In this document: in pieces, positions 23,701-45,498 of the stretch
How the letters are laid out: every line of letters begins with the position of its first letter
How positions within the stretch are numbered: the stretch's first letter is position 1
Assembly: GCF_000153125.2 (NCBI RefSeq)
Contig: NZ_CM002299.1
Coordinates: 3,360,928-3,424,927, forward strand
Reading direction: 5' to 3'
Source: Congregibacter litoralis KT71
GTDB taxonomy: Bacteria; Pseudomonadota; Gammaproteobacteria; Pseudomonadales; Halieaceae
DNA: 64,000 nucleotides
Notes under the pieces: generated by a model
The model's database searches: none
What the model was told of the DNA's origin: nothing
The model's input: only the letters and a program-made list of their open reading frames with translations
Made by a program: the position numbers and the translations under genes

Positions 23701-24354
23701 CACTGCGCCCTCAGGATCCGTATCATTAGACAAGACGTTGGCAACCAGGACTCCACCGAAAGGTGTTTCAAAAGTGTCGTCTGCGGCATCAGGGGCTGCA
23801 TTGGCGGCCGGCGGCTGCACCACCGGCGGCGTAGGTCCATCGGGGTCATCATCTAGCAACAGTTGCAGGTCGTTATCGGCCTCGGCCTCGACCACCCGCA
23901 GGGTCTCGGGGTTTAGCGCAGCTCGAAAACCCTCAAACTCAGGCAGATCAAAACCTATGCGACCGAGACGGACAAAGGAGCTACCCTCGTCACCGCGGCC
24001 GCCCCCCGCTGCGGGCGCCTCCAGGTTATCCAGAATATCGCCGTCACCTTCGAGGGCGGCTACGACCGCCGCAATGGTGGAGTCCTCTAGCGCGGCTTCT
24101 GAGGCGGTCGTAGCAGTATCGTTGAGCAGTTCGGAACTCAGCAACATTTCGGTGTCGGCGACCAGAGCAATCGAGGGCATATCCGGCATCAACAGCTCAA
24201 CCACGGCGTCAGCCGAGGGCACGAGCACCTCGCCCTGAAACACGGCGTCGCCGCTTTTGAGTTCACGCAGGGATCCATCATTAGAGCGGGCGAACACCTT
24301 GCCTTCGCGGATATCTACGGTGCCGATTGCTTGTGCCATAACCTTGACTACCAC
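11791..24354 (-). CDS. Giant LapA-like adhesin with retention module and tandem cadherin-like repeats
   Basis: 4,187 residues from the GTG at 24354 (an ATG at 24339 would remove five). Residues 1-110 match the LapA retention module that plugs the TolC pore. A PAAG site at 114-117 is the expected LapG cleavage point. After an acidic linker, three cadherin-like domains start near 188. About 16 composite units follow (residues about 480-3440), each pairing a dystroglycan-type domain (YSATGLP, GVISGT, TDGVN motifs) with a tandem-95/cadherin-like domain (NDxDPDGDDLT, NGDGTVTFTPDADYNG). The C-terminal 240 residues hold DLDNDGLEYL and DANESGTVD calcium-binding loops and should include the type I secretion signal. 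No classic GGxGxD RTX nonapeptides are seen. It should be secreted by the LapB/LapC/TolC set and mediate biofilm attachment. Confidence 0.9.
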   Translation of the reverse strand: MVVKVMAQAIGTVDIREGKVFARSNDGSLRELKSGDAVFQGEVLVPSADAVVELLMPDMPSIALVADTEMLLSSELLNDTATTASEAALEDSTIAAVVAALEGDGDILDNLEAPAAGGGRGDEGSSFVRLGRIGFDLPEFEGFRAALNPETLRVVEAEADNDLQLLLDDDPDGPTPPVVQPPAANAAPDAADDTFETPFGGVLVANVLSNDTDPEGAVLRVADNGEPANGTVTVDDDGVFSYTPNDGFSGSDSFTYTITDPDGGTDTATVFITVTPEVAPPPAPNLAPDAVDDVFEVGFESALVGSVLGNDSDPEGDSLTVTGNTDPDNGTVSVEADGSFIYSPNDDFSGSDSFTYTITDANGNTDTATVLISVGEETVAPPPPPAPNVGPDAINDTATVEEDTPLTITVLTNDADPDGDPLTVTAITQPANGTAVLNADGTVTYTPNADYNGPDSFTYTISDGQGGTDTATVNLTVTPVDDAPVSADLGAQANLDADSVSLDVSGNFSDVDSALTYSATGLPAGLSIDPSTGVISGTIDNSASQTGGGVYSVVVSATDGVNSPVSESFEWTVTNPGPDAVDDTQGAAEDTEVDISVLANDTDVDGDTLSILSFTQPDNGTVTDNGDGTLRYTPDANYNGPDSFTYTITDSEGGTDTATVNLNVDAANDPPVSIDLAAQSSEDADSVSLDVSGNFNDVDSTLTYSATGLPAGLSINPSTGVISGTIDNSASQVGGGVYNVTVTATDGVNPPVSESFDWTVTNPGPTASDDAGTTDEDTAVTFAAADLLGNDNDPDGDDLTIASVGSPSNGTVVLNGDGTATFTPDADYNGAASFEYTISDGEGGVDTATVNLTVNAVNDPPVVINPLGNQSNDDADVITPLDASTAFEDVDSTLTYSATGLPDGLSIDPSTGIISGTIDNSASQVDGGVYNVTVTATDGVNPPVSESFDWTVTNPGPTASDDAGTTDEDTAVTFAAADLLGNDNDPDGDDLTIASVGSPTNGTVVLNGDGTVTFTPDADYNGAASFEYTISDGEGGVDTATVNLTVNAVNDPPVVINPLAPQTNDDADVITPLDASTAFEDVDSTLTYSATGLPDGLSIDPSTGIISGTIDNSASQVDGGVYNVTVTATDGVNPPVSESFDWTVTNPGPTASDDAGTTDEDTAVTFAAAGLLGNDNDPDADDLTITSVGSPTNGTVVLNGDGTVTFTPDADYNGPASFEYTISDGEGGTDTATVSLTVNAVNDPPVVINPLAPQTNDDADVITPVEASAAFADVDSTLTYSATGLPTGLTINASTGAISGTIDNSASQVAGGVYNVTVTATDGVNPSVSESFDWKVTNPGPEANDDSETLGEDSGATVIDVLANDSDPDGDDLTVTSVGTASNGTVSLVNGVVSYTPNENYNGPDSFTYTISDGEGGTATATVNLTVDAANDPPVSVDLNPQNNADADVVSLDLSGNFSDVDSILEYSATGLPAGLTIDSATGIISGTIDNSASQVGGGVYNVTVTATDGVNPSVSESFDWTVTNPGPTAADDAGTTDEDTAVMFTAANLLANDSDPDADDLTITSVGSPINGTVVLNGDGTVTFTPDADYNGSASFEYTISDGEGGTDTATVNLTVNAVNDPPVVINPLGNQSNDDAEVITAIDASSAFEDVDSTLEYSATGLPDGLTIDPNTGIISGTIDNSASQVGGGVYNVTVTATDGVNPPVSESFDWTVTNPGPTAADDTGSTDEDVAVTFTPADLLGNDTDPDADDLTITSVGSPSNGTVVLNGDGSVTFTPDADYNGPASFEYTISDGESGTDTATVSLTVNAVDDPPVVINPLGNQSNDDADVIAPVDASAAFADIDSTLTYSATGLPTGLTINASTGVISGTIDNSASQLGGGVYNVTVTATDGVNPPVSESFDWTVTNPGPTAADDTGSTDEDVAVTFTPAELLGNDIDPDADDLTITSVGSPSNGTVVLNGDGTVTFTPDADYNGPASFEYTISDGEGGTDTATVSLTVNAVNDPPVVINPLAPQTNDDADVITPVDASAAFADVDSTLTYSATGLPTGLTINASTGIISGTIDNSASQVAGGVYNVTVTATDGVNPPVSESFDWTVTNPGPTAADDAGTTDEDTAVTFTSGDLLGNDSDPDGDDLTITSVGSPSNGTVVLNGDGTVTFTPDADYNGPASFEYTVSDGEGGTDTATVNLTVNPVNDPPVVIVPLAPQANDDADVITPLDTSTAFEDVDSTLTYSATGLPTGLTIDPSTGVISGTVDNSASQVGGGVYNVTVTATDGVNTPVSESFDWTVTNPGPVANDDSETLGEDSGATVIDVLANDSDPDGDDLTVTSVGTASNGTVSLVNGVVSYTPNADYNGPDSFTYTISDGEGGTATATVNLTVDAANDPPVSVDLNPQNNADADVVSLDLSGNFSDVDSSLEYSATGLPTGLTIDSATGIISGTIDNSASQVGGGVYSVTVTATDGVNPPVSESFDWTVTNPGPTAADDTGTTDEDAAVTFAAADLLGNDNDPDADDLTITSVGSPSNGTVVLNGDGTVTFTPDADYNGPASFEYTISDGEGGTDTATVSLTVNAVNDPPVVINPLAPQTNDDADVITPVDASAAFADVDSTLTYSATGLPDGLIIDPNTGIISGTIDNSASQLDGGVYNVTVTATDGVNPPVIESFDWTVTNPGPTASDDAGTTDEDTAVTFAAADLLGNDIDPDADDLTITSVGSPSNGTVVLNGDGTVTFTPDADYNGPASFEYTVSDGEGGTDAATVNLTVNPVNDPPVVIVPLAPQANDDADVITPLDTSTAFEDVDSTLTYSATGLPTGLTIDPSTGVISGTIDNSASQVGGGVYNVTVTATDGVNPPASESFDWTVANPGLTAADDTGSTDEDVAVTFTPAELLANDSDPDGDDLTITSVGSPSNGTVVLNGDGTVTFTPDADYNGSASFEYTVSDGEGGTDTATVNLTVDAVNDPPVSINPLAPQANDDADVIAPLDASAAFADVDSTLEYSATGLPNGLSIDPNTGIISGTIDNSASQVGGGVYNVTVTATDGVNAPISESFAWTVTNPGPVANDDSETLGEDTGATVIDVLANDSDSDGDDLTVTSVGTASNGTVSLANGVVSYTPNENYNGPDSFTYTISDGEGGTATATVNLTVDAANDPPISIDLNPQNNADADVVSLDLSGNFSDVDSTLTYSATGLPTGLTINASTGVISGTIDNSASQVGGGVYNVTVTATDGVNPPVSESFDWTVTNPGPTATDDSGSTNEDTSVTFDPADLLGNDNDPDGDDLTITSVGSPSNGTVVLNGDGSVTFTPDADYNGPASFEYTISDGEGGTDTATVNLTVTAVNDPPVVINPLSPQANDDADVIAPVDASAAFADVDSTLTYSATGLPAGLSIDPSSGIISGTLDNSASQVDGGVYNVIVTATDGVNPPVSESFDWTVTNPGPDAVDDSVTTVEDIAIDIDVLADNGNGADSDVDGDTLTISSFTQPTNGTVTDNGDGTLKYTPNPDYNGSDSFTYIISDGEGGTDTATVNLTVTPENDPPESDAKTLTVAEDTNDNAVPTLTGSDSDGSVSGFVITSLPANGTLLLSGVAVSMGQTVPAAEAGNLTYTPNADYFGDDSFSYASVDDNGAQDGTPANVAITVTEVAEPDTPPTADPLTALAEIANGPGPNGTLSNPQLEVFLSVDGIADGVGLEGIPTLGGVDDETPLENLVFTLRSPPTDGILYLDAEGDGSYEQAQVGDTFSSASSFYWAKPAEQVVQDLTTDATGVTVSGFNGRNATITQSRDGLGVDSAGNTQPQAPTQLGYRNGSSETMVLNLGGPATEATVQIERLFPNEGEAGRVEALDADGNVLGVWTFYGRANATLDGVPVDFNIGGSGGSFTLSDIGQPFYALRFTATPYVDGVTQGTGKNADSSDYLIKSVAYSPISLADAEFTYDVTDEQGNVSDPATVTIRQSNAPITLDLDNDGLEYLSREAGVVFTDEVTGESVNTAWVAPDDGLLVIDANESGTVDQTEEYVFTEWSENAETDMEAVAEVFDTNQNSQLDPGDESWEQFAVWQDADSDGVTDEGELRSLDELGVDSIALTYSEESTSGSTANGDVTIHGQSDVTWTDGSVSVAEDASFAISAADVLSDDGDLILPAHEGEDSSTIARDVPASEEQKAGGEADIAALEIDLLLNNSNDDKSGTGEID
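14042..22915. repeat. Long in-frame tandem repeat array inside the adhesin gene (units 576 bp, variants 561 bp)
   Basis: Recurring landmarks fall 576 bp apart (for example equivalent points at 15581, 16157, 16733 and at 20735, 21311), with 561-bp variant units in between and single units of 570 and 582 bp. The variant unit encodes a SETLGED-type segment and recurs every four or five units, giving a higher-order pattern. Stretches starting near 15947 and 17660 are almost identical and exactly 1,713 bp apart, three units. All unit lengths are multiples of three, so gain or loss keeps the frame. Confidence 0.9.
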
Positions 24355-32498: not shown

Positions 32499-35285
32499 AT
32501 GTTTGATCGCTCTGGATATGCCATCGGAATCGGGCTTCTGATGGCGCTCCTGGTCGCTTGCTCGGGGTCAGAAAACGAATCAGAACAAAAGCTTCTGGCT
32601 CGCGCCAGCTCTGCCCTTGAAGCAGGGAAAATTGACGCCGCGATGGTGGATCTAAAAACCGCTTTACAGCAAAACCCAGGCAGCGCCGCAGCAAGGGTTC
32701 TGCTGGGTGATGCTTACATGGTGCAGCGCGAAGCCGAAATGGCCGCGGCAGAGTTTCTCAGAGCCCACGAGATTGGTGGGCAGGTAGATAGTCAGGTGCG
32801 TTACGCTCAGGCACTCATCGCCGCGGGGGATACCGACACATTATTGACCTTGCACGAAAGCGATGACCTCACAGCGGCAGACGCTCCGCTGTATCAAGCT
32901 GCGCTGGCCCGAGCGTATTCACTGACCGGTAACTACGAAGCGGCAACGGAAGCTGTGAACAGAGCCCTGGCAGCAGACGCGGCGGATCCCTATATCAGGT
33001 CCAGTGAGGCCCTGGTTCTGCTGCGACAAGGTGGCAATGTGTTTGGCGCCGCTGACATTCTTGCAGGAATCACCGATGACTATCCTCTGAATGACGAGGC
33101 TTGGAGTTTGCGCGCAGATGTTGCGCGCTATCAGCAGGACTACGCTAGTGCGGCAAAGTGGTATGGAAAGGTCGCTGAAATCAATCCCGATCGAATAGCC
33201 GAACGACTCCACCTGGTAGGTGCGCTTATTGAGCTCGGCAGAAGCGACGAAGCAGATAGCAAACTAGCGGAACTCGAGGAGTTGGAGCTCGAAAACCCAG
33301 GTGTTAACTTCGCTCGCGGCCGTCTGCTCTTTGACAAGGGAGAATACAGCCTTGCCCTAGAAGAGCTCAACCAGGTTCTGGGAGTGCTTCCAGAACACAC
33401 CGCAGCACTTTACCTTGCCGCTACTGCGAACCTCCAACAGGGCAATCTTGCAACTGCGGAGCGGCAGCTAATAAAGCTAGTGGCAGAGCAACCAAGTAAC
33501 GTTCCAGCGCGACTACAACTTGCCAGCGTTTACCTACAAAGAAATGATGCGCTGGCGACAGAGCGTGTCGCGCGCGAAATTTTGCAACTGGAAGAGAAAA
33601 ACATCGCCGCCATGCGTCTACTAGCTTTGGCACTGGTTGCTCAAGGGGAATATGTTGAGAGCGAGCAGCTCTACCAGCAGCTCGCCACACTTAAGCCCGA
33701 TTCCGTAGAGGATCGCACCGGACTTGGAGCCACGCAACTACTCCTGGGTGATACAGCTTCTGGCATCGTAGAGCTTGAGAAAGCGCTGGCCATGGACCCG
33801 AAGAATGCGCAACTTCGAGAGCGTCTCATCGGCGCTTACCTTGCCAGCGACAGAATTGATTTAGCCAGAGAAGCCGTGGCTGGATATCAGTCGGAATCGC
33901 CAGACGATACGCGTCCGCAGATATTTGCTGCCAGATTTGCCCTGCAAACAGGTGAGAGAGACAAAGCCCGAGAAATCTTCGAGTCTGTGCTCGTCAAAGA
34001 GCCGGGCAACATCAATGCCAATGGCGGCTTGGCGATCATGGCTTTAAACGAGCGCAATATTGATGAAGCGCGTCAGCATTTCTACTCGATTCTCGAATTT
34101 CATCCCACTAACGTACAAACTCTTATGAATCTCGCGACTCTTGAGGAACAGGCGGGCAATACAGATGCCATGCTGGACGCTCTAAATCGTGCGATGAGCG
34201 CAGACCCTCAGGCATTGCCGCCTCGATTGGCGCTCGCTCGCTATGAGATCATTCAGGAGAATCCTCGGAAAGCAGAAGCCCTTCTGGACACAGTGCGAGA
34301 GCACCACACAAACAGCTTTGAGCTTCACCAACTCCTCGCCGCAGCGTTTATGGCGAGCAGGCAAACCACGCAGGCGGTAACTAGTGGCAGGCAAATGCTG
34401 AGGCTTCGCCCAAACGACCCCGCCTCACTTGCGTATGTAGCGCGACTGGAACAAAACGATGGCCAGCTGGGAGCTGCTCGTGAACACGCCGAACGCGTTC
34501 TTGCGCTGACATCCGATAACGTCGAAATGCGCAAGCTGATCGTAGAGACTTTGTTAGCCCAAAACATGCCCAACAGGGCAGCAGCTGAGCTTGCAAAACT
34601 CCCCTCGACCGTGAGGGCTGCGCCGGGAGTAGCCAAGGTGGAAGGCCAACTTGCAATGCTGCAGGACAGACCAGCAGACGCTGAAGTGCTGTTCCAGAGG
34701 GCATTTGAGATCGAGCCTGACAGTCAACTAGCGGTCTTTCTGAACATCGCTAAATGGGAGCAAGACAAGCGCAAAGAAGCCATTGACAATCTGGAAGCCT
34801 GGTTGACTGAGCACCCCGACGATCTTGCGGTGCGCTCTAAACTCGCGGCTTGGCAACTCGCCGTTGGTAACGAGAAGAGAGCAAAGGCGCATTACAATTT
34901 CTTAATCGAGATCGCTCCAGAAAACCCCATGGTGCTCAACAATCTCGCATGGCTTAACCGGGAGACTTCACCAGAATTGGCGTTGAACTACGCCAAAAAG
35001 GCCCATGCACTGGCACCGGAAAGCGTATTGATCATGGATACCTACGCCATGGTCCAACGATCTATAGGTAATAAAGAAGAAGCCCTCGCTCTCAGCGACC
35101 TCGCTCTCTCTACAGATAAGAAGCTCGACCCCGAGCTGCAGTTCAACCGCGCACTGATACTCATTGATGCGGACCGGGAGGAAGACGCCATAGAAATCCT
35201 TGCCAAGCTGGTAGCAGGCGCAGAGTTTGCTCAGCAGTCCGAGGCTCGCGCGTTACTAGGCAGCATACTCAGCGATGGGCCATAG
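32499..35285 (+). CDS. prsT: XrtA/PEP-CTERM system TPR lipoprotein PrsT (copy 1)
   Basis: 928 residues. A lipobox (LLVACSG) at about residues 17-23 marks an outer-membrane or periplasmic lipoprotein. The rest is a long array of TPR motifs, about 20 to 25 copies, such as ALEAGKIDAAMVDLKTALQQ and NNLAWLNRETSPELALNYAK (quoted in part). Length and composition match the PrsT family, which accompanies exosortase A loci and is thought to scaffold polysaccharide secretion. AGGA lies eight bases before the ATG. A second copy is encoded at 42721 with low overall identity by eye, so the two are old paralogues rather than a recent duplication. Confidence 0.88.
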   Translation: MFDRSGYAIGIGLLMALLVACSGSENESEQKLLARASSALEAGKIDAAMVDLKTALQQNPGSAAARVLLGDAYMVQREAEMAAAEFLRAHEIGGQVDSQVRYAQALIAAGDTDTLLTLHESDDLTAADAPLYQAALARAYSLTGNYEAATEAVNRALAADAADPYIRSSEALVLLRQGGNVFGAADILAGITDDYPLNDEAWSLRADVARYQQDYASAAKWYGKVAEINPDRIAERLHLVGALIELGRSDEADSKLAELEELELENPGVNFARGRLLFDKGEYSLALEELNQVLGVLPEHTAALYLAATANLQQGNLATAERQLIKLVAEQPSNVPARLQLASVYLQRNDALATERVAREILQLEEKNIAAMRLLALALVAQGEYVESEQLYQQLATLKPDSVEDRTGLGATQLLLGDTASGIVELEKALAMDPKNAQLRERLIGAYLASDRIDLAREAVAGYQSESPDDTRPQIFAARFALQTGERDKAREIFESVLVKEPGNINANGGLAIMALNERNIDEARQHFYSILEFHPTNVQTLMNLATLEEQAGNTDAMLDALNRAMSADPQALPPRLALARYEIIQENPRKAEALLDTVREHHTNSFELHQLLAAAFMASRQTTQAVTSGRQMLRLRPNDPASLAYVARLEQNDGQLGAAREHAERVLALTSDNVEMRKLIVETLLAQNMPNRAAAELAKLPSTVRAAPGVAKVEGQLAMLQDRPADAEVLFQRAFEIEPDSQLAVFLNIAKWEQDKRKEAIDNLEAWLTEHPDDLAVRSKLAAWQLAVGNEKRAKAHYNFLIEIAPENPMVLNNLAWLNRETSPELALNYAKKAHALAPESVLIMDTYAMVQRSIGNKEEALALSDLALSTDKKLDPELQFNRALILIDADREEDAIEILAKLVAGAEFAQQSEARALLGSILSDGP

Positions 35286-35399: not shown

Positions 35400-36278
35400 G
35401 TGGAAAAACAGTTTGATTACGAAGACGCATTCTCGCGAAACATCGGCTGGCTGTCGCTCGAAGAGCAACAGCTCCTGCGAAACAAACGTATAGCCATCGC
35501 CGGTATGGGTGGCGTCGGCGGCGATCACGCCGTTCGCATGGCCAGGCTTGGGGCGGGTCGTTTTACCATCTCGGACCTGGATGTTTTCGAACAGGCAAAC
35601 TTCAACCGGCAATATGGCGCGACCATGGATACCGTTGACCAGACCAAGGTCGAGGTCATGGAAAAACTGCTGCTCTCAATTAACCCCGAGGCCGATATCC
35701 GCAACTTCCCGGATGGCGTAAGCGATGAAAACGTCGATGATTTTCTTGCGGGCGCCGACCTCTACATCGACAGTCTGGACTTTTTTGCCCTGGATATACG
35801 CCGCACGGTGTTTCGGCGTTGTCGCGAGCTGGGTATTCCGGCCATCACTGCTGCCCCCATGGGCATGGGCACCGCACTTCTGGTGTTTACGCCAGACAGC
35901 ATCAGCTTTGATGATTATTTTGATTTCGATTCAGTTGAGAGCTGGGAAGACAAGATGATCAAGTTCCTTATCGGACTCTCCCCCTCCATGCAGCAAAGGC
36001 ACTACCTGGTGGGCGACAGCGCCATCGACTTCAATACACGGAAGGTGCCCTCGACGGGGCTCGGGATCTCTCTCGCCGCGGGGGTCGCCTGCACCACCGC
36101 TGTAAAACTCCTGCTTGGCCGAGGCCCCATCGTGACCGCACCATCAGGCTTGCACTTTGACGCCTACCGCAACAAATACGTGAAAACCTGGCGCCCTGGC
36201 GGTAACCGCAATCCGCTGCAGCGGATCATGTTTATGGTGGTGCGGACGATACTGAAGAAACAACAACGAAGCACCTAG
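35400..36278 (+). CDS. Stand-alone ThiF/MoeB/HesA-type adenylyltransferase (E1-like)
   Basis: 292 residues from a GTG with an AGGGGG ribosome-binding site eight bases upstream. The nucleotide-binding motif GMGGVGGDHAVRMARLG is near residues 35-51 and the DLDVFEQANFNRQ segment near 60-72, giving the E1 adenylation fingerprint with Asp and Arg in place. The CxxC zinc motifs of MoeB/ThiF and an obvious catalytic Cys are absent. A C-terminal basic stretch with a hydrophobic segment (RIMFMVVRTILKKQQ) could touch membrane. No ubiquitin-like protein, nitroreductase or JAB protease is adjacent. Substrate unknown. It lies between prsT and a strong bidirectional terminator. Confidence 0.8.
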   Translation: MEKQFDYEDAFSRNIGWLSLEEQQLLRNKRIAIAGMGGVGGDHAVRMARLGAGRFTISDLDVFEQANFNRQYGATMDTVDQTKVEVMEKLLLSINPEADIRNFPDGVSDENVDDFLAGADLYIDSLDFFALDIRRTVFRRCRELGIPAITAAPMGMGTALLVFTPDSISFDDYFDFDSVESWEDKMIKFLIGLSPSMQQRHYLVGDSAIDFNTRKVPSTGLGISLAAGVACTTAVKLLLGRGPIVTAPSGLHFDAYRNKYVKTWRPGGNRNPLQRIMFMVVRTILKKQQRST

Positions 36279-36380: not shown

Positions 36381-37331
36381 TTAAGAGCGCTGCTTTCGAG
36401 CTCGAGCTCCGAGACCAAGAAGTCCAAGGCCCAGAAGACCCAGTGTAGCTGGAGCTGGCACATCAAACTGAATGTTTGCCGAATTCAGGAAGGTAGTACG
36501 CAAATACCGATCAGCAACTGTGCCTTCTCCAAACGTTCTCAACTCGAAATCCGCAATCAGACCGTCAAGAGCGGTAGCGATACTGGTGTCGTATCGCGCA
36601 TCAAGCCAATCAAACACCGATTCACCATCATCAAGCGCGGCAGGAACCGTTGCGCCACCCTCCAGCTCCGAATTGCCTCGAACACGTATGGTGTCAAGAG
36701 GATCAAGTACTATGTCTGCGAAGTCTTCGCCTGCACGAGTCCCAGCCTCGAACCGGGCAAAACCTGCTGTAACGTCTGCGACCTCACCGAAGACCTCGAT
36801 TTCGATATCTCCAGAAAACGGATCCGATACAGATGAACCAGTCACATCAATAACGATCTCGTCACCTGCGCAAGATCCCGTACATGTTAGCGCAACCTCA
36901 CCCCCATTAAACTCACCGACCAACGCGTCGGTACCCAGCCCGTTGTAGTTTGGATCAGGGTCAAAATTCAGGACGGTCGCAGTGCCTTCAAGCACCCAGG
37001 ACACGTCAACACCCCAAGCGAGGCCAAGCGCCTCAGTACTTGTCCCATCCAAACCGTTCAAGCCGAGAACTGTGGTAATCGCTGCATCAATCACAATATC
37101 GCCGGTGGATACCCCACCGCTGTTGTCGATGTCGTAGTACACAGATGTCGGATTGAAACCATCGAGTGTGAGTTGATTAAAAGTATCAGTTCTGGTGTCA
37201 GCATCGCCTAGAGCAAAAGCGCCATCACCATCTGCACGAACGTCAAGGCTAATAGGAACTGCCATTGCTGGAACAGCTAACAAACCGCCCGCCACACCAA
37301 CTGCTAAAGCCAACTTATTAAACTTTTTCAC
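36381..37331 (-). CDS. PEP-CTERM sorting domain-containing protein
   Basis: 316 residues from the GTG at 37331, chosen because GGAG lies nine bases upstream and the protein then begins MKKFNKLALAVG, a proper signal peptide cut near AMA-VPI. A TTG at 37355 would put a non-hydrophobic lead in front. The body is very acidic with few Cys (TCTGSCAG) and has Asp-rich loops (DIDNSGGVSTGD, FDPDPNYNG), possibly calcium binding. The C-terminus is VPAPATLGLLGLGLLGLG plus a basic ARARKQRS end, the exosortase recognition tail. It has the best sigma-54 promoter in the window and shares a bidirectional terminator with the ThiF-like gene. Confidence 0.9.
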   Translation of the reverse strand: MKKFNKLALAVGVAGGLLAVPAMAVPISLDVRADGDGAFALGDADTRTDTFNQLTLDGFNPTSVYYDIDNSGGVSTGDIVIDAAITTVLGLNGLDGTSTEALGLAWGVDVSWVLEGTATVLNFDPDPNYNGLGTDALVGEFNGGEVALTCTGSCAGDEIVIDVTGSSVSDPFSGDIEIEVFGEVADVTAGFARFEAGTRAGEDFADIVLDPLDTIRVRGNSELEGGATVPAALDDGESVFDWLDARYDTSIATALDGLIADFELRTFGEGTVADRYLRTTFLNSANIQFDVPAPATLGLLGLGLLGLGARARKQRS

Positions 37332-37388
37332 GATACTTAACTCCTGTGATCGCAATATGATTGAAAACTTGCCTACGTTCAGAATAAA

Positions 37389-37404
37389 AGCAACCAGCGT
37401 GCCA
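37389..37404 (-). promoter_or_regulatory. Sigma-54 (RpoN) promoter of the third PEP-CTERM gene
   Basis: On the minus strand TGGCACG-CTGG-TTGCT matches the consensus TGGCACG-N4-TTGCW exactly. Predicted start near 37378, about 47 bases before the GTG. The region upstream is A/T-rich (37405-37430). Confidence 0.85.
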
Positions 37405-37615
37405 CTAAAATTATATATATATTTTTCAATGTCTTACAGAAAAACCTCCAATCCAAAACTTTTCTACAGCACAGATATGTAAAGTTTTTCGACACCTAGC
37501 GTTAGGCGTTGCTCGACAAAACGCCCCTACAGTCGCTAGACTCTATCACCGATATGTAATAAACCGTCTAAGCTATTGTTTATTTTAGAGTTATAGGGGC
37601 GAGGCGAGGAGACGC

Positions 37616-38437
37616 ATGACGCAAAATCATCGCTCGGCTGCAAAAGCTCGCCGATTGGCATTGTCACTTCTGCTAGCTGTGGGAACGTGTTGTGCGGTCT
37701 CGGGATCAATTGGCGCCGATCCTGGCTATTCACTAGCCAACGCCATTTTCACGCGAGACGCTGGCGCGGACTTAGCAATGGTCGGAAAAATGACTTTGCG
37801 AACTGCAAAAGGCAAAGAGCGCACGCGGGAGTTTGTGATCTATCAACGCGACACCCCGTCAGGGCTGGCGGCAACTTTGATTCGCTTCAACTCGCCAGCG
37901 AGCATCAGAAATACCGCGCTTCTTGACGATCCAAGGGAGGATGGACTCTGGCTCTATCTCCCTGCGCTCGATCGAGTACGACGGATCAGCAGCTCTAACC
38001 GAGGCGGCCGTTTCGTAAACACCCAACTGTATTACGAAGACCTTCGCGCACGGCATCCAGGTGATGACATACACGAGCTTGTAGGTGATCGAGAGTATGA
38101 GGGTGTCAGCACGCAGCTTTTGCAGAGCATACCTCGTGACAAAAGCAAATCCGTTTACAGCAAGCGTTTGACTTGGGTGCATCCGGAGCTTTTATTGCCA
38201 CTGCGAGTGGATCTGTACGAAGGAAGCGAACAGGCAAGCAAGCGCTTACTGGTAAAGCGCATCGATGAGATTCAGGGAGTGTGGACTATCACCCGCAGTG
38301 TAATGGAGAACCTGGCCACTGGGGAGTCCACGGTAATGACTTTCACGGCTGTCCGTTACGATCAGGGCCTTCCTCATGACTTGTTCACAACATCGTCTCT
38401 GAAAAATCCAACGCTGGAGTCAAGCTATCGCCCATGA
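37616..38437 (+). CDS. LolA-like outer membrane lipoprotein-sorting family protein
   Basis: 273 residues with an N-terminal signal peptide (about 12-35). The body has the LolA-like half-barrel pattern seen in proteins that partner RND exporters: KMTLRTAKGKERTREFVIYQ, LIRFNSPASIRNTALL, GLWLYLPALDRVRRISSSNRGGRF (quoted in part) and the YYEDLRARHPGDD segment. These periplasmic proteins probably ferry hydrophobic molecules. It is the first of three genes with a DUF1302-like barrel and an RND permease, 43 bases and one base apart. The upstream 280 bp contain divergent promoters; no sigma-54 site faces this gene. Confidence 0.82.
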   Translation: MTQNHRSAAKARRLALSLLLAVGTCCAVSGSIGADPGYSLANAIFTRDAGADLAMVGKMTLRTAKGKERTREFVIYQRDTPSGLAATLIRFNSPASIRNTALLDDPREDGLWLYLPALDRVRRISSSNRGGRFVNTQLYYEDLRARHPGDDIHELVGDREYEGVSTQLLQSIPRDKSKSVYSKRLTWVHPELLLPLRVDLYEGSEQASKRLLVKRIDEIQGVWTITRSVMENLATGESTVMTFTAVRYDQGLPHDLFTTSSLKNPTLESSYRP

Positions 38438-38480
38438 GGCTTACATCGCTAAGAGTCGCGGCAGCTTTTCCGGTGAGCTC

Positions 38481-40349
38481 TTGTCGGCGCTCCAAAATGT
38501 GTGTTTCGCCGTGGCAATCGCTCTTGCAACTTCCCCACCAAATGCCCGGGCAGACACGCCTTCAGGTAGTTTAAAGTCAATAACAGTTAGTGAAGACTCA
38601 AGTAGTGCCGCGACGTTCATTTTAGCGGTTGATGGCTCAATTCAGCCGCCCCGGCATTTCACGCTGCTGTCCCCCCCCCGTCTGGTCATAGACTTAGCTG
38701 GCACGACTGCTAAAGGCGATGTTCAGGAACTCTCTGCCGCAACAGCACCGTCCTTGGTGAATAGAATTCGGCTCGGCTCACACCCAGGGCCCCGGACCAG
38801 AGTGGTGTTTGACCTGCACGACGCCCCAAGCCCAGGCATGTTCACCATAGAAACCAAGAGGCAGTCTGGTTCGCAGACTATAGTTGTCCGTTTCCCGCGA
38901 ACATACGCTGTCAATGCTAACAACTCGGATGACGATAACCCATCAGCAAGAGAAGCAACGAGTGTCGCGATCAAAACAAGCGCAACGAGTGACTCACTAG
39001 CCGCTCAACTAGCTGACCACAGCAAGCCAGAGGCCAAACGCACTAACAGCACGCTCATTTTTGGCAGTGATCCACAACCCACACCAATGGAGAGTCAGCG
39101 CCAAGCCACGCCAGCAGTCACTGGCAATACAGCAAAGCAATGGTTTATCGACCGTGCACTGCTCGAGTCAGGTTACGTAAGAAACAGTACAGATGATGGT
39201 GTTAATACACATCTACAATTCATAGCTGGGCTCACACGGTCGATCAGTGACTCGCTGAGCTTTCGCCTTTCCGCGAGAGTCGATGGACAACACCAAGCCA
39301 ACGGCCTCACGGAGCTACAGTACCTACGCGCAGATTATGACGAAAGCTGGCTGCGCTACACCGTCGCCGATTGGCGCGTAACCGCTGGTGCCCAGCGTAT
39401 CATTTGGGGCCGCGCCGACGAATTTTCACCTACGGATAAGTTGAGCACCCGAGATTTTACCCGTTTAATTATGGACGACCTGCCTAGTCGGCGAAGAGCA
39501 AACCCCGCCCTGAGGGTCGAGCGCTTATGGGGGAATCGGCATCTGGACTTAGTTTACCTGCCGACTTTCAGAGAAGCTGTATTACCTGCTGACGAAAGCG
39601 TATGGTTTCCAGTAGACCCAAAAAGCGGTGCCGTGGCAGGACTTCCTATTGATCCGGAGATCCAACCATTGCTTAGAGGCGCTAGAGTGCGCAATGATTT
39701 TGCAGGTAACGAAGGATTTGCTTTACGATTCTCTGATTCGGGATCTGCCCTTGACTATGCGGTCACTGCGCAGCGTGTCAACAATCCTGAGCCATACTTC
39801 AAATTAGCAAGCCCTCCGGGCCGCGACGGCCCCGCGGTGCTCGACGTCGTTTACCCTCGCACATGGGTAGTTGGAGGTGACGCAGCTATAACTGCGAACG
39901 CCTGGACCTTTCGTGGCGAAATTGCGTGGCTTAGCGACTCCCCCTACACCGACGCAAGTTCGTTACAGCTTCGTATGTCAGAAGAATTAAATTGGGTGGT
40001 CGGGGCTGAAGTGTTTCCCAATGATGGCGACTTACGAATAACGACCCAGCTCTCTGGCCGGCATCTGCTTGATGCCAGCAATAGCGTAGACTTCATCGAC
40101 ACGCTTAACCTACTGGGAGACATGGAAACACCATTTACAATCTCCAAATTACCCTTCCGAGCTCGGCTCCGCTACGGATTTCGCTTAGACGAGCGAGGCA
40201 ATTATCTGAACCCTGAACTAATCTACACTGCACTGGAGCCAGGCGAGATTTACATCGCTGCACACATATTTTCCGGTACCTATGGCACACAGGAAGGCTT
40301 CTACGCCGACCGCGATACGGTCGTTATCGGTTGGCGCGCAAAATTCTAA
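38481..40349 (+). CDS. AMIN domain-outer membrane beta-barrel protein (DUF1302-like)
   Basis: 622 residues from the TTG at 38481. The N-terminus then reads as a signal peptide ending near ARA-DTP, preceded by GGTGAG; an ATG at 38434 lies in another frame. Residues about 30-125 form an AMIN domain (LLSPPRLVIDLAGT, VNRIRLGSHPGPRTRVVFDL, quoted in parts), a periplasmic module that often binds peptidoglycan. After a Ser/Thr-rich linker, residues about 205-622 look like a DUF1302/alginate-export-type barrel (AGAQRIIWGRADEFSPTDKL; final residue Phe). A run of nine C at 38671-38679 lies in the AMIN coding part. The stop overlaps the RND gene start (TAATG). Probably the outer membrane exit of an RND-linked export system. 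Confidence 0.75.
   Translation: MSALQNVCFAVAIALATSPPNARADTPSGSLKSITVSEDSSSAATFILAVDGSIQPPRHFTLLSPPRLVIDLAGTTAKGDVQELSAATAPSLVNRIRLGSHPGPRTRVVFDLHDAPSPGMFTIETKRQSGSQTIVVRFPRTYAVNANNSDDDNPSAREATSVAIKTSATSDSLAAQLADHSKPEAKRTNSTLIFGSDPQPTPMESQRQATPAVTGNTAKQWFIDRALLESGYVRNSTDDGVNTHLQFIAGLTRSISDSLSFRLSARVDGQHQANGLTELQYLRADYDESWLRYTVADWRVTAGAQRIIWGRADEFSPTDKLSTRDFTRLIMDDLPSRRRANPALRVERLWGNRHLDLVYLPTFREAVLPADESVWFPVDPKSGAVAGLPIDPEIQPLLRGARVRNDFAGNEGFALRFSDSGSALDYAVTAQRVNNPEPYFKLASPPGRDGPAVLDVVYPRTWVVGGDAAITANAWTFRGEIAWLSDSPYTDASSLQLRMSEELNWVVGAEVFPNDGDLRITTQLSGRHLLDASNSVDFIDTLNLLGDMETPFTISKLPFRARLRYGFRLDERGNYLNPELIYTALEPGEIYIAAHIFSGTYGTQEGFYADRDTVVIGWRAKF
38671..38679 (+). repeat. Homopolymeric C9 tract inside the AMIN-barrel gene
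   Basis: Nine consecutive C encode part of the SPPR motif about 64 codons after the start. Tracts of this length can slip during replication and would switch the frame near the N-terminus. Slippage is not shown here. Confidence 0.6.
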
Positions 40350-42598
40350 TGAACTTCCTGCTCAACAAACCCAAACTAGCCGCATTAGTTTTCGGGTTAA
40401 TCCTGGTTCTACCTGGACCCCTTCTACTGCGGCTGACGCTCGACAATGCACCCGAATCGTACTTTCCAGAATCGGCGCCTGCAGTAATTTTTGACAAGGA
40501 AGTCCGGACGTACTTCCCACAAGATCAGGTGTTGGTGGCCATCTTTCAAGGCAATGACATTTTTTCGCGCCAGTTCTTACACTCTCTGGAACAGTTAAGT
40601 AAAAACTTGGAGTTGGAAACAAATATTGAGCGAGTATTGAGTGTTACGCAGGTTGATCATATTGAGCCAACAGATGATGGCTTCGCTGTAGAGTCGTTGT
40701 TAGGCGAAGGACAAACAACCGACTCTGCGAGTGAGAATCTCGCGCGAGCACTTAGCGATCGATTTGCACCAAACGCACTAGTTTCGAGCGATGGATCAAC
40801 TCTCGCACTAATAATTCGTCCCGTGCCGCTTTCCGGCAGCCTCGCTCGCTTGTCACTTTACAACCATGTGATTGATAGCATTGAAGAAAGCGAGGTAAGA
40901 GAGTCTCTAATTGCTGTTGGTGGACATATCGCTCTGGACGTCGCCCAGTTGCGAGCAATGATCCGCGATTTAGCAACGCTTATCCCCGGCACACTGGGGG
41001 TTTCCATGCTGGTGCTATGGTGGCTATTTCGTCGCTGGCAAGTATTACTCATATCGGCCCTTTGCATTGGCGCGGTCACTGGCGCGGCGACTAGTTTGCT
41101 CGTTCTTATCGGCAGTCCTTTTACACTCATATCCGCAATAATGCCGCCACTGCTCACTGCTCTTACCGTTGCGATGCTGATGCACCTTTTTAGCGCACTG
41201 TGTAATGCGGACTCGCGTGGCCTGCGCTGCGAGGCGCGTATGCGTGATGCCTTGCTGACAGTAAGCACTCCTATACTATTTACCGCACTAACCACAGCAG
41301 CAGGCCTGCTCTCGCTAATGGCCAGTCCTATTCAGCCTATCGCGAGTTTCGGCTTAACGGTAGGCGTCGCGACGCTCATTGGCGCCCTACTAATCGTGAC
41401 GGTACTCCCGGCTCTTTTGCTCCAAATTGAACCCGAGCGTTGGCAGGCTCAAAGTGGGGGGCTACGGCGCATGGATGCAATAACAAGCCGGCTACTACGT
41501 ATTTCTTTGCGTCGACCGCGCACAGTGCTCGCAGTAACAGCCGCGGTGTTATTAATCAGTGCATTGCAACTGCCACGTATTATCGTCGAGACCGATCTAT
41601 ACAGCTTTTTTGACGATGATCACCCTATCAATCAGGCCACGCTGACAATTGAAGACAAACTTTCAGGGGTCATGCCTTTGGAACTGATAATTGAGGACGT
41701 GGGACCGGGCAGTCTAAAAAACCCCCAGCAATTAAAAGCAATCGCGAATATTGAGGCATGGCTCGAGAATCGACCCGAGGTGGACTACACTATTTCTTTT
41801 CCAGCGATGCTCAGTGAGATGCACCGGGCCTTCAATCCAGAGATCGAATCTCCAAACGCACTGCCAGATCGCGAGGCAGCCGTGGATCAATATTTATTAT
41901 TCTATGACAACGACGATCTATATGACGTGGTTGACGAGGACTTTCAACGGACAAGGATCCTGGCAAATCTCAATGTTCACGGAGCCACTCAATTGAATGC
42001 CTTACTTCGCGCGCTTGATGAAGAAGTGGCGAGTACTCTTGCTGATGGCTTGAAACTTGGCACAGCAGGGATGGGACGCCTGTTTGCCGATCAAGAACGA
42101 CTGCTAATAAAAGGCCAGATTAACAGCCTATTTTTAGTATCCACAATGATTACGCTGCTGATGTTAATACTATGGCGTAACCTCCGGTTTGTTCTTGCCA
42201 GCATCCTTCCAAACTTTGCGCCTGTACTGCTGATTTTTGCAGTTATGGGCACACTGGGAATATGGCTAGACATGGCAACTGCGATGGTAGCAAGTGTAGC
42301 CATAGGCATTGCGGTCGATGACACCATCCACCTGTTGCATGGCACGAGGGCCGGGCTTGAGCGAGGTGCAGGCCTGACCGCCGCAATCGCACGCAGTGTA
42401 CGTCGTCGAGGAAGGGCTCTAGTGGCGACTACGGTAGTGCTCTCCGCGCAGTTCCTTTTGATGTCGTCTTCGCCTTTCCAGCCAACGGCGATCTTTGGCA
42501 TCCTAACGGCAGTTGGTCTTCTGATCGCGCTTGTGTTTGATCTGCTTGTATTGCCAGCACTCATCGTTGTTTTACTGCGTGGCGTTGTAAAAAATTAG
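40349..42598 (+). CDS. RND-superfamily (MMPL-type) transporter
   Basis: 749 residues from the ATG at 40349, which overlaps the stop of the barrel gene (TAATG). Two homologous halves, each with one leading TM helix, a large periplasmic loop and a cluster of five helices (about 195-345 and 575-745), fit the HpnN/MMPL branch of RND permeases. Typical segments are PIQPIASFGLTVGVATL in the first half and VGIGIAVDDTIHLL-like SVAIGIAVDDTIHLL in the second, the latter with the paired Asp expected for proton relay. With the LolA-like protein and the barrel it makes a plausible lipid or hydrophobic-polymer export set. Substrate unknown. Confidence 0.85.
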   Translation: MNFLLNKPKLAALVFGLILVLPGPLLLRLTLDNAPESYFPESAPAVIFDKEVRTYFPQDQVLVAIFQGNDIFSRQFLHSLEQLSKNLELETNIERVLSVTQVDHIEPTDDGFAVESLLGEGQTTDSASENLARALSDRFAPNALVSSDGSTLALIIRPVPLSGSLARLSLYNHVIDSIEESEVRESLIAVGGHIALDVAQLRAMIRDLATLIPGTLGVSMLVLWWLFRRWQVLLISALCIGAVTGAATSLLVLIGSPFTLISAIMPPLLTALTVAMLMHLFSALCNADSRGLRCEARMRDALLTVSTPILFTALTTAAGLLSLMASPIQPIASFGLTVGVATLIGALLIVTVLPALLLQIEPERWQAQSGGLRRMDAITSRLLRISLRRPRTVLAVTAAVLLISALQLPRIIVETDLYSFFDDDHPINQATLTIEDKLSGVMPLELIIEDVGPGSLKNPQQLKAIANIEAWLENRPEVDYTISFPAMLSEMHRAFNPEIESPNALPDREAAVDQYLLFYDNDDLYDVVDEDFQRTRILANLNVHGATQLNALLRALDEEVASTLADGLKLGTAGMGRLFADQERLLIKGQINSLFLVSTMITLLMLILWRNLRFVLASILPNFAPVLLIFAVMGTLGIWLDMATAMVASVAIGIAVDDTIHLLHGTRAGLERGAGLTAAIARSVRRRGRALVATTVVLSAQFLLMSSSPFQPTAIFGILTAVGLLIALVFDLLVLPALIVVLLRGVVKN

Positions 42599-42720: not shown

Positions 42721-45498
42721 ATGCGCCATCTAACGCTGATTTCTTTATTTCGACAGGCAGGACTTCTGCTGGCGTTTGCCGCTCTCGCAGCCTGCGGTGA
42801 AGGTGAGAGCCCGGAGACGCTGCTGAAACGTGCAGATATTGCTCTTGCAGAGGGTAGGGATAACGCGGCTCTAATTGACGTGCGAGCCGCGCAGCAACAG
42901 GCACCCAACAGTCGCGAGGCTCGCCGGCTGCTTTCAGAGATCGAGATGTGGCGCCAAAACCCGACCGCAGCTATTGAAGAAGCAGAGCGTGCCCTTCAGG
43001 GCGGCGCACCAACGCCTGCGATTTTGATCACCTTGGCAAAATCACTGATCAAAGGCCGAAGATATTCGGATTTTGATGCACTAGTGGCCGATGGCACGTT
43101 TACTAGTATCAAAGACGACCCACGCTACCTGTCACTTCTTGCCCGAGCTCAGGCAAGTTGGGGCGATTCTGCAAAAGCTCGCGCAACCATCAATCAAGCA
43201 CTCGAAAAAGCACCCAGTGACCCTGATGTTGCGAGCGCTTATGCGCTGCTAACTATTGAGAACAACATGACCCTCAAAGAGGCTATGGGGCGACTAGAAG
43301 AATCGGTCACCAAACACCCCCTCGCTTATGAAGTATGGAGCGCGCTGGGCATTCTTCAAATAACACTGAAAAACTACGATGCCGGCGCAGATGCGTTCAT
43401 GGAATCATTGAAGATAAATCCGTACCGTCTCACAGATCGCTACCTGCTGGCTGACGCTCTAATCCGGAGTCAACGATATGACGAGGCACTAGAAGTCATC
43501 GACGTGATGGAGAAGCTAGTGGACAGTCCAAGCAGTGTCCACTATTTACGAGCACAATGGCATATCGCACAGGAGCATCTCGAAGAAGCAATCGAGAGTG
43601 CAAACAGTGTACTCGGTTTAGAGCCAAAGAATGAGCAAGCGCTGCTGATTGCGGCGTTGGCTAATACTGCTTTGGGAAACCTGGGTACGGCTCGACAGCA
43701 ATGGTTGATTCTCGCCACTCTTGATGCCTACCAGCCTCAAACCAATCTGCGTCTTGCAAAGGTCTTGGCCCGGCTTGGCGAGACGGCTGAATCAGAAGCT
43801 TTGCTGCGAGAAATCCTCAATGAGTATCCAGAAAATCTTGGCGCCAAACAGCTACTTGCTACCGCATTGATCGCTCAAGGTAGAAATGCAGAGAGCACAA
43901 AATTGTACGAGGAACTTCTTTCGATTAATCCAAAATCTACAGCAAACATAGTGCAGTACAGTTCTGTATTAAACAAAAGCGGCAAACGAGACCAAGCCAT
44001 TGAGCAGCTAAAGACCGCGCGGAAACTGGCCCCAGGGTCTGCTGAGGTGCGTGCGCGTCTCGTGAGCTTTCTGCTGAGTGATGGCCGTGAAGCTGAAGCA
44101 GAACAAGAAGTCGCAAGCTATCTTGACGATTACTCCGACAAGGCGGTAGCGCACGTATTAGCGGGGCGGTTCGCTTACGTGATTGACGAACCAAACGCCG
44201 AGGCACATTACGAACATGCCATCGAGATTGAACCGGGAAACAAGCCCGCCAACAGTGCACTTGCCGAAATGCGCTTAAAAGACGGAAATTATAGAGAAGC
44301 GCTAGCACTTTACCGAACCATCCTCGCAAGCCATGAAAACGACCTCGACACGCTGATACGCATCGCTGCAGTGCAGTCGGCAATGGGTGACCCTAAGAGT
44401 ATGGAATCAACTCTCCTACAAGCATATGAAGCGCACCCAGCCTCGGCACGTCCGCCGCTAAGCCTGGCTCGCTATTACGTTGCCAACAAGCGTTACAACG
44501 ACACAGTGCGCCTCATTTCGTCCTTTGAGGGTAATGGCGCAGCAGACCCAAGGTTGTATGCACTACTTGCCCAAAGCCACATGGCTATGGGTGAAACTTC
44601 TAGCGCCGTGGCGGCCGCAAAACGCATGCAAAAAGTGGAGCCAACTAATGCTCTGGGGTTCATCCTTGAAGCTCGAGCTCTCGTGGGTGGCGAAAAACTG
44701 GCAGCAGCAACCGATGCGCTTCGCGAGGCCCTAAAAATCAACAATAGTCCCGCAATACGTTCAGAACTCATCACGGCATTACTCCTTGACGGAAAATCCG
44801 ACCTCGCAAGGACCGTGCTCCGCACCGCGCCCGAAAACGCTTTCACTGCTGCCGAACGTGCGCTAACAGAAGGGCAAATAAAGGCAGGTGTCAACAATCT
44901 GCAGGGAGCAGCCGTAGACTTCATCCAAGCTTATGAGTTAGATCCGAGCGAGAAATACGCGACATTGACCGCGAAAACTTATTGGCGAGCAGGTGACCAA
45001 GATAGCGCGATCAGCGTACTGCAAGACTGGCTGACGCGAGACTCTAGCAGCGTAGCTGCCCTGGGACAGATTTCTGGTTATTTGCTTGAACAAGGTAAGA
45101 ATGCAGACGCTTTACCGTACCTTGAGACGCTCAACGACATCACCCCAAAACAGGCGAGTGTACTGAACAATCTCGCCTGGGCTTCCATGACAGAAAATCC
45201 GAAGCAGTGTCTGAGGTTTGCGCAACAGGCGGTTGAGCTTGCGCCGGGCAATATCGATATTCAAGACACACTCGCTCTAGCCTATGCTGTCAATGGTCGT
45301 GCTGAAGAGGCCTTGGCACTTAGTGATGAATTGATTCGCCAAGCCCCAAGTAATTCAGCGCTAGTGGTCAGCAGGGCGAGAATACTAGGGAAACTCGATG
45401 AGACACAACAGGCTATCCAACTATTAAATTCACTCATCGCCAGAAACAAGGATGTCAATGGCGCACAAGAATTACTGGATGCTTTTATAAAAAAGTGA
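42721..45498 (+). CDS. prsT: XrtA/PEP-CTERM system TPR lipoprotein PrsT (copy 2)
   Basis: 925 residues, nearly the same length as copy 1. A lipobox (LAACGEG) at about residues 21-27 is followed by repeated TPR units across the whole protein, e.g. LLKRADIALAEGRDNAALID, AIEEAERALQGG, and a C-terminal NNLAWASMTENPKQCLRFAQ. Both copies share the N-terminal pattern of a TPR starting within 15 residues of the lipid Cys and the NNLAW motif near the end. It follows the RND gene by 122 bp and converges with the beta-helix gene. The presence of two full-length PrsT proteins in one locus is uncommon; they may serve different partners. Confidence 0.86.
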   Translation: MRHLTLISLFRQAGLLLAFAALAACGEGESPETLLKRADIALAEGRDNAALIDVRAAQQQAPNSREARRLLSEIEMWRQNPTAAIEEAERALQGGAPTPAILITLAKSLIKGRRYSDFDALVADGTFTSIKDDPRYLSLLARAQASWGDSAKARATINQALEKAPSDPDVASAYALLTIENNMTLKEAMGRLEESVTKHPLAYEVWSALGILQITLKNYDAGADAFMESLKINPYRLTDRYLLADALIRSQRYDEALEVIDVMEKLVDSPSSVHYLRAQWHIAQEHLEEAIESANSVLGLEPKNEQALLIAALANTALGNLGTARQQWLILATLDAYQPQTNLRLAKVLARLGETAESEALLREILNEYPENLGAKQLLATALIAQGRNAESTKLYEELLSINPKSTANIVQYSSVLNKSGKRDQAIEQLKTARKLAPGSAEVRARLVSFLLSDGREAEAEQEVASYLDDYSDKAVAHVLAGRFAYVIDEPNAEAHYEHAIEIEPGNKPANSALAEMRLKDGNYREALALYRTILASHENDLDTLIRIAAVQSAMGDPKSMESTLLQAYEAHPASARPPLSLARYYVANKRYNDTVRLISSFEGNGAADPRLYALLAQSHMAMGETSSAVAAAKRMQKVEPTNALGFILEARALVGGEKLAAATDALREALKINNSPAIRSELITALLLDGKSDLARTVLRTAPENAFTAAERALTEGQIKAGVNNLQGAAVDFIQAYELDPSEKYATLTAKTYWRAGDQDSAISVLQDWLTRDSSSVAALGQISGYLLEQGKNADALPYLETLNDITPKQASVLNNLAWASMTENPKQCLRFAQQAVELAPGNIDIQDTLALAYAVNGRAEEALALSDELIRQAPSNSALVVSRARILGKLDETQQAIQLLNSLIARNKDVNGAQELLDAFIKK

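What the first reader, a model, noticed from the sequence alone, without database searches (positions are those of the whole stretch)
37616..42598. Three-gene LolA-like / AMIN-barrel / RND export module nested in the exosortase locus
LolA-like carrier, outer membrane barrel and MMPL-type permease are translationally linked and lie between PEP-CTERM and prsT genes. The barrel carries an N-terminal AMIN domain, a combination not usual for DUF1302-like proteins, which would anchor the exit pore to the cell wall. Together they could form a complete envelope-crossing route for a hydrophobic or polymeric product tied to the matrix, possibly not described before.
Basis: partly seen in the sequence, partly recalled or inferred. 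Interest (0 to 1): 0.7.

Follow-up and report, generated by a model that had tools for sequence, protein, structure and literature searches.

The report
Wall-anchored lipid exporter beside exosortase
Three linked genes look like a pump, a carrier and an outer-membrane pore that move a fatty molecule across the bacterial envelope; in relatives the same pore carries one of three unrelated cell-wall-gripping domains or none, and the genes tend to travel with enzymes of the kind that make fatty amino acids and with the exosortase matrix system.

The parts
37616..38437 (+). LolA-like periplasmic carrier, 273 aa
   Evidence: PF17131 180.5 bits, weak DUF1329 26.1 bits (cut-off 23.1); solved relatives 9tp6, 3bk5, 4z48, 3buu
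38481..40349 (+). AMIN-barrel outer-membrane protein, 622 aa from TTG (start codon unsettled)
   Evidence: PF11741 34.7 bits; AF2 model; aromatic last residue in 69 of 72 family sequences of 400 aa or more, some of them near-copies
38637..38852 (+). AMIN domain, residues 53-124 of gene 2
   Evidence: strands at 29-138 in the model, ten-residue blocks mostly at pLDDT 74-82, one at 53
38907..39128 (+). disordered linker, about residues 143-216
   Evidence: pLDDT below 50 over 143-216
39129..40346 (+). outer-membrane beta-barrel, about residues 217-622
40349..42598 (+). MMPL/HAE3-like RND permease, 749 aa, ATG inside TAATG
   Evidence: PF03176 86.2 bits; best NCBIfam hit TIGR00921 HAE3, 142.4 bits, below its cut-off of 351.9
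35400..36278 (+). E1-like ThiF-family adenylating enzyme, part of the wider module
   Evidence: NF006077/PRK08223 423.7 bits (cut-off 266); within 10 kb of the barrel in 24 of 28 loci
36381..37355 (-). PEP-CTERM protein gene between ThiF and lolA (context)
   Evidence: PF07589 28.4 bits; sigma-54-like site 37389-37404 and TTTACA-ended 17-mer 37478-37494 on its strand
42721..45498 (+). PrsT TPR lipoprotein (context)
   Evidence: TIGR02917 394.5 bits (cut-off 312.2)
32499..35285 (+). PrsT TPR lipoprotein, second copy (context)
   Evidence: TIGR02917 530.6 bits
47598..49112 (+). exosortase A, XrtA (context)
   Evidence: TIGR03109 335 bits (cut-off 208)

Best explanation
A wall-tethered exporter for a hydrophobic, most likely N-acyl amino acid product of the XrtA/PEP-CTERM system. 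Proposed steps: (1) an exosortase-associated acyltransferase (FeeM-like N-acyl amino acid synthase) joins a fatty acyl chain to an amino acid or amine in the cytoplasm; (2) ThiF activates or further modifies the product; (3) the MMPL permease, driven by the proton gradient, moves it out of the inner membrane; (4) the LolA-like carrier shields it across the periplasm; (5) the DUF1302-type barrel passes it into or through the outer membrane; (6) the AMIN domain, on a long flexible linker, holds the barrel to peptidoglycan, probably denuded septal or polar wall. Shown by computation: the gene set, its conservation, the domain and fold assignments, and the exchange of AMIN, LysM and SPOR on one barrel family. 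Inferred: cargo, ThiF chemistry, direction, assembly and localisation.
For: Conserved module: in 28 loci LolA 27, MMPL 27, ThiF 24, synthase 22. In L012 the synthase matches TIGR03694 exosort_acyl (198.8 bits, cut-off 111.95) and FeeM (33.2, cut-off 27). TIGR03694 is over cut-off in 9 of 12 class-sample barrel genomes against 47 of 369 overall (hypergeometric 7e-7). XrtA 11 of 12 against 73 of 369, and 10 of 10 against 32 of 244, all ten on the same contig at 8-52 kb. LolA, barrel and MMPL diverge together across 14 loci (r 0.64-0.86, Mantel 0 of 5000). Barrel fold. Three wall-binding domains on one barrel family, single SPOR clade rejected (AU p 0.00037). Function by analogy: deletion of AmeABCD lowers monoterpene tolerance and raises Nile Red accumulation (PMC6394551); AMIN of PilQ binds wall and localises the pilus complex, and AMIN, SPOR and LysM are said to bind denuded wall (PMC5285504); a synthase mutant in Methylomonas loses its polysaccharide band (PMC11072679).
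Against: In the window genome the synthase is not in the module but about 58 kb from it, with PrsR and a third PrsT. Six of 28 loci lack a synthase within 10 kb and four lack ThiF; some of these are cut by a contig end or lie just past the flank, not all. ThiF does not clearly diverge with LolA (r 0.14, 1080 of 5000) or barrel (r 0.30, 413 of 5000), only with MMPL (r 0.50, 6 of 5000), so it is not a fixed partner; and correlated divergence of the trio is also expected from shared descent alone. Many relatives have no recognised wall domain, only an acidic linker, so anchoring is not essential to the family. Locus L017 has LolA and barrel but no MMPL or ThiF within 10 kb. Genome G360 has the module without a detected XrtA. 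Seven of the nine same-family genomes other than the window's lack a clear barrel. No cargo, complex or localisation has been tested.
Confidence: 0.5

Rival explanations
1. An AmeABCD-like efflux system for toxic hydrophobic compounds from outside, only housed in the exosortase locus.
For: Same three protein classes as AmeA, AmeB and AmeD, which protect against monoterpenes (PMC6394551).
Against: The same genome has an Ame-type cassette elsewhere with all four protein classes (DUF1302, matched only over its C-terminal part in a 276-aa frame, DUF1329, YCF48 and MMPL; L070). In the loci mapped, the trio lies by the synthase, ThiF and Prs genes and it lacks the YCF48 protein. Catabolic genes near it were not searched for.
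Confidence: 0.15
2. The barrel is an exit pore for the exopolysaccharide, like AlgE.
Against: The window genome has its own XrtA exopolysaccharide export protein, chain-length determinant and kinase, all over cut-off (TIGR03027, TIGR03007, TIGR03018). LolA-like plus RND partners carry lipid-like cargo in the cases read. Fold alone shows no function.
Confidence: 0.1
3. The module builds the outer membrane with a structural lipid or takes lipid up (inward or bidirectional transport), and the synthase link is shared regulation or neighbourhood only.
For: Thalassolituus TOL_3187 (MMPL plus LolA-like) and the predicted porin TOL_3188 rise on long-chain alkane (PMC6304351). HpnN, of the HAE3 family, moves hopanoids (stated in PMC6394551).
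Against: Co-localisation with a synthase, ThiF and the exosortase system.
Confidence: 0.17

Closest known systems
AmeABCD of Castellaniella defragrans (HAE3 RND exporter; PMC6394551)
   Same: MMPL/HAE3 permease, LolA-superfamily periplasmic protein, DUF1302 outer-membrane protein; the solved LolA-superfamily structures cited there (4Z48, 3BK5, 3BUU) are three of the four that match this LolA-like protein
   Different: No AmeC (YCF48) partner in the trio; short LolA_like with only a weak DUF1329 match; AMIN, LysM or SPOR on the barrel in many members; neighbours are synthase, ThiF and exosortase system. An Ame-type cassette sits elsewhere in this genome
ApeL/ApeM/ApeN of aryl polyene clusters (PMC8253772)
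   Same: LolA-like chaperone plus RND permease for a lipid-like product
   Different: ApeN is described as LolB-like, not a large barrel; no aryl polyene family named among the 28 different window proteins scanned with NCBIfam
PilQ secretin and FimV of type IV pili (PMC5285504)
   Same: Envelope pore or scaffold localised through AMIN or LysM wall binding
   Different: Secretin, not a porin-type barrel; different cargo
PEP-CTERM/XrtA system (PMC1569441) and its linked N-acyl amino acid synthases (Craig 2011, known to me here only through citing papers)
   Same: Genomic home, PrsT, PrsR, synthase
   Different: A word search of the 2006 paper finds no acyltransferase, ThiF or RND; whether Craig 2011 names an exporter could not be checked

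Membership tests
AmeABCD-type tetrapartite exporter | HAE3-family RND permease | tested here: inconclusive
   Best NCBIfam hit is TIGR00921 HAE3 (142.4 bits) but below its 351.9 cut-off
AmeABCD-type tetrapartite exporter | DUF1302 outer-membrane protein | tested here: inconclusive
   No hit for the window protein; orthologues L060, L062, L064, L065 over cut-off
AmeABCD-type tetrapartite exporter | YCF48-like AmeC gene in the cassette | tested here: not met
   No room for a gene between the three and none of the scanned flanking genes matches it; the genome's Ame-type cassette has one (PF14870)
AMIN domain (PF11741) | score over curated cut-off | tested here: met
   34.7 against 20.5 bits
LolA_like (PF17131) | score over curated cut-off | tested here: met
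   180.5 against 30 bits
XrtA/PEP-CTERM-associated module | occurs in XrtA genomes and near XrtA genes | tested here: met
   11 of 12 and 10 of 10 genomes; 16 genomes with both on one contig, 8-90 kb apart
XrtA/PEP-CTERM-associated module | PrsR/sigma-54 promoter in front of the operon (typical of PEP-CTERM genes, not known to define associated modules) | tested here: inconclusive
   A crude consensus scan found sites only on the PEP-CTERM gene's strand
OprD/AlgE-type porins | porin-type outer-membrane barrel fold | tested here: met
OprD/AlgE-type porins | sequence relationship | tested here: inconclusive
   6-10% identity in the structural alignments; no Pfam porin family over cut-off
Lipoamino acid exporter | transports N-acyl amino acids | not testable with these tools
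   needs experiment

The most novel reading that the evidence does not exclude
The synthase-ThiF product is the missing acceptor to which exosortase A joins PEP-CTERM proteins (the 'unknown periplasmic nucleophile' of the 2006 model), and this LolA-barrel-MMPL machine, pinned to septal or polar wall, delivers that lipid or the lipid-tagged PEP-CTERM proteins to the cell surface. Nothing found here excludes it; nothing shows it.
Probability: 0.08. Interest if true: 0.9.

Novelty: new variant of a known kind. Interest (0 to 1): 0.6.

Why it matters
[quoted passage not shown] A conserved exporter-like module next to them gives a direct genetic handle on what the product does in the matrix. One barrel family that has carried three unrelated wall-binding domains suggests that fixing a lipid exit pore to the wall is under selection in part of the family, and offers a clean test of whether AMIN, LysM and SPOR are interchangeable.

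Tried and rejected
Polysaccharide exit pore: weakened by the separate XrtA export set in the same genome.

Coregulation by PrsR/sigma-54: the intergenic region holds a sigma-54-like site and a TTTACA-ended 17-mer, but on the PEP-CTERM gene's strand; the scan lists none for lolA. The 17-mer pattern was copied from the window itself, so its zero mismatches mean nothing; only the TTTACA end, the length and the spacing come from PMC1569441. The sigma-54 consensus was typed from recall.

G057, a barrel cut by its contig end (E 5e-26), was dropped from the tallies; LolA and PrsR lie beside it.

Fused synthases: I first took the Thioalkalivibrio synthase for a fusion of two synthase halves. Searches show two adjacent genes in different frames (in L012, 5951-6718 and the later part of the 6208-7596 frame); the 462-aa frame used as a query has a spurious N-terminal part. 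The fusion idea is dropped.

SPOR labels: in the tree P0033 and L063 were called SPOR by eye. P0033 scores 12.8 bits, below the cut-off, and L063 has no Pfam hit. One search repeats the count without them: 6 changes of state, and one SPOR clade is still rejected (the group was named after the tree was seen). The tree's 61 rows were picked by me: 48 of the 61 proteins (13 fragments or proteins with a missing or unclear N-terminus dropped) and 13 of the 18 barrels (L013, L016, L017, L058, L065 left out). L071-L079 came later and are not in it.

One search read the window barrel in a wrong frame; one search is the corrected run, on 14 loci picked by me. Some barrel starts printed are wrong (P0016, P0017, P0023, P0024); the tree used the last 402 residues and is not affected.

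Structure of the LolA-like protein: not obtained; solved relatives used instead. Foldseek's own PDB search was not obtained; only the VIA second look was. Literature: DUF1302 with MMPL and LolA gives 0 papers; four or more of exosortase, SPOR domain, RND, N-acyl, DUF1302, porin gives 0. The Craig 2011 paper is not held.

Full report
What is there. The three open frames are real and carry clear domains: LolA_like (180.5 bits), AMIN (34.7 bits) followed by a region without a Pfam hit over cut-off, and MMPL (86.2 bits). They sit among XrtA-system genes: PrsT on both sides and XrtA (over their NCBIfam cut-offs), a PEP-CTERM gene (over its Pfam cut-off), and glycosyltransferase, FemAB-like and amidotransferase genes whose best XrtA-system matches are below their curated cut-offs. 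The window is part of a 4.35-Mb single-contig genome. The barrel-MMPL pair overlaps by TAATG; the lolA-barrel junction is less clear, because the barrel frame has only a TTG or later alternative start.

Relatives. A protein search with the full-length protein finds 14, the window's own among them; with a barrel-only alignment, 61 at E at most 1e-10. Of these 61, precomputed Pfam labels give AMIN in 15, LysM in 6, SPOR in 6 and none of these in 34, which include fragments. Direct scans find LysM (L012, L013) and SPOR (L057, L060, L062, L064, L065, L078) over cut-off, and DUF1302 over cut-off in L060, L062, L064 and L065; L056, L061 and L063 have no hit. P0014 has a marginal AMIN (20.8 against 20.5 bits); seven other unlabelled proteins scanned show no wall domain and P0033 only a sub-threshold SPOR. 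On the barrel tree AMIN and LysM are each one clade (99/97 and 100/100; the LysM rows are close relatives) while SPOR is scattered; with only the supported SPOR labels one SPOR clade is rejected (p-AU 0.00037). The simplest history is an early SPOR-bearing barrel in which SPOR was lost several times and replaced once by AMIN and once by LysM; the root is not known, so this order is inferred. PMC5285504 (passages read) says that denuded peptidoglycan is the target of AMIN, SPOR and LysM, and that PilQ's AMIN domains bind wall and place the pilus machinery.

The module. In an even sample of 369 genomes of the class, 12 have the barrel; in 244 of the order, 10 have it at E below 1e-120, the window's counted in both. 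A named-genome scan gives nine Thioalkalivibrio and Ectothiorhodospira loci; two of them repeat class-sample genomes (L016 = L055, L018 = L059) and were left out. In the 28 loci, within 10 kb: class set LolA 11, MMPL 12, ThiF 11, synthase 8 of 12; order set (without the window) 9, 9, 7, 7 of 9; named set 7, 6, 6, 7 of 7. The one locus without LolA (L058) begins about 1 kb before the barrel match. The seven named loci are close relatives and count for little on their own. In L012 the synthase matches TIGR03694 exosort_acyl and FeeM; elsewhere it was mapped by tblastn. Two synthase-like genes are near the module in 13 of 28 loci, as adjacent separate genes in L012, L055 and L071. In L071, from the same family and also with AMIN on the barrel, the order is PrsR, PrsT, synthase, synthase, LolA, AMIN-barrel, MMPL, ThiF, PrsT. 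In the window genome the synthase (TIGR03694, 210.5 bits) lies about 58 kb away beside PrsR and a third PrsT. Of nine same-family genomes other than the window's, two have the barrel, one (same genus) has only a weak hit and six have none, so the module is patchy.

Link to exosortase. XrtA over cut-off: 73 of 369 class genomes, 11 of the 12 with the barrel; 32 of 244 order genomes, all 10 with the barrel (hypergeometric 1e-7 and 4e-10; these ignore shared ancestry). Without the window the values are 10 of 11 and 9 of 9. On a shared contig the distance is 8-52 kb in the ten order genomes and 8-90 kb in the seven class genomes where it could be measured. G360 has the module and no detected XrtA.

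Who goes with whom. Across 14 loci, distances of LolA, barrel and MMPL correlate (LolA-barrel 0.80, LolA-MMPL 0.64, barrel-MMPL 0.86; Mantel 0 of 5000 each); those of ThiF with LolA (0.14, 1080 of 5000) and barrel (0.30, 413 of 5000) do not clearly, with MMPL somewhat (0.50, 6 of 5000). So the trio is the coherent unit, and ThiF and synthase are frequent but less fixed neighbours. Shared descent alone can give such correlation.

How it probably works. AmeABCD (abstract and passages read) has the same three classes and is reported to act as an exporter of hydrophobic compounds; aryl polyene clusters pair LolA-like and RND proteins (passages). Related synthases make N-acyltyrosine surfactants (PMC4897644, passages), and a synthase mutant of Methylomonas loses its polysaccharide band and regains it on complementation (PMC11072679, passages). 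A stieleriacine cluster with synthases and a PEP-CTERM gene has only putative transporters with no clear role (PMC7293339, passages). I therefore propose export of a lipoamino acid or a ThiF-modified form. The polysaccharide has its own export set in this genome, and an Ame-type cassette is present separately, its DUF1302 part matched only over the C-terminal region, so neither job seems to need this trio.

What is new. The transporter kind is known. Not found in the searches (listings, plus the passages named here): a DUF1302-type barrel with a wall-binding domain, its swapping between AMIN, LysM and SPOR, or an exporter tied to exosortase-linked synthases. These were few word searches in an open-licence library that lacks most subscription papers, so this is weak evidence of absence.

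Noticed in passing
window 6688-28632: A 4187-aa reading frame (11791-24354) beside a type I secretion permease (TIGR03375) and HlyD adaptor; 6688-8508 (TolC-like) and 8714-9430 with 9440-11353 (LapG/LapD-like) are guesses by eye. Probably a giant surface adhesin system.
   Followed up: no
L067 4638-9995 (own genome C1:3456637-3461994): PrsR, a third PrsT and the exosort_acyl synthase lie together about 32-37 kb past the window's end, preceded by a histidine-kinase-like frame.
   Followed up: partly
L070 7404-13172 (own genome C1 about 2.344-2.350 Mb): Ame-type cassette (DUF1302, DUF1329, YCF48, MMPL) distinct from the module in the window; the DUF1302 frame of 276 aa covers only the C-terminal part of the family, so that gene may be split or broken.
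   Followed up: partly
L012 5951-7596, L055, L071 5687-7570: Two different synthase-like genes sit side by side near the module (13 of 28 loci have two); they may work as a pair.
   Followed up: partly
L015 5305-5877: A PilZ-domain gene just upstream of the synthases; a published synthase has a fused PilZ domain (PMC4897644), which hints at c-di-GMP control.
   Followed up: no
window 38434-38483: An ATG overlapping the lolA stop opens a plausible signal-peptide start in a different frame from the barrel; the barrel frame itself has only TTG or later alternative starts.
   Followed up: partly
window 37389-37494: On the PEP-CTERM gene's strand: sigma-54-like site and TTTACA-ended 17-mer spaced as in the 2006 PEP-CTERM promoter description.
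   Followed up: partly
L017: This Thioalkalivibrio locus keeps LolA and a LysM-barrel but MMPL and ThiF are not found within 10 kb.
   Followed up: no
own genome C1:2834865-2837045 and C1:3663577-3665757: Two RND genes with nearly equal scores and equal frame lengths 0.83 Mb apart, probably a duplication.
   Followed up: no
own genome C1:3676239-3676781 (L069): A second LolA_like gene (144 bits); tblastn with the window's proteins found no barrel or MMPL in the 19 kb around it.
   Followed up: no
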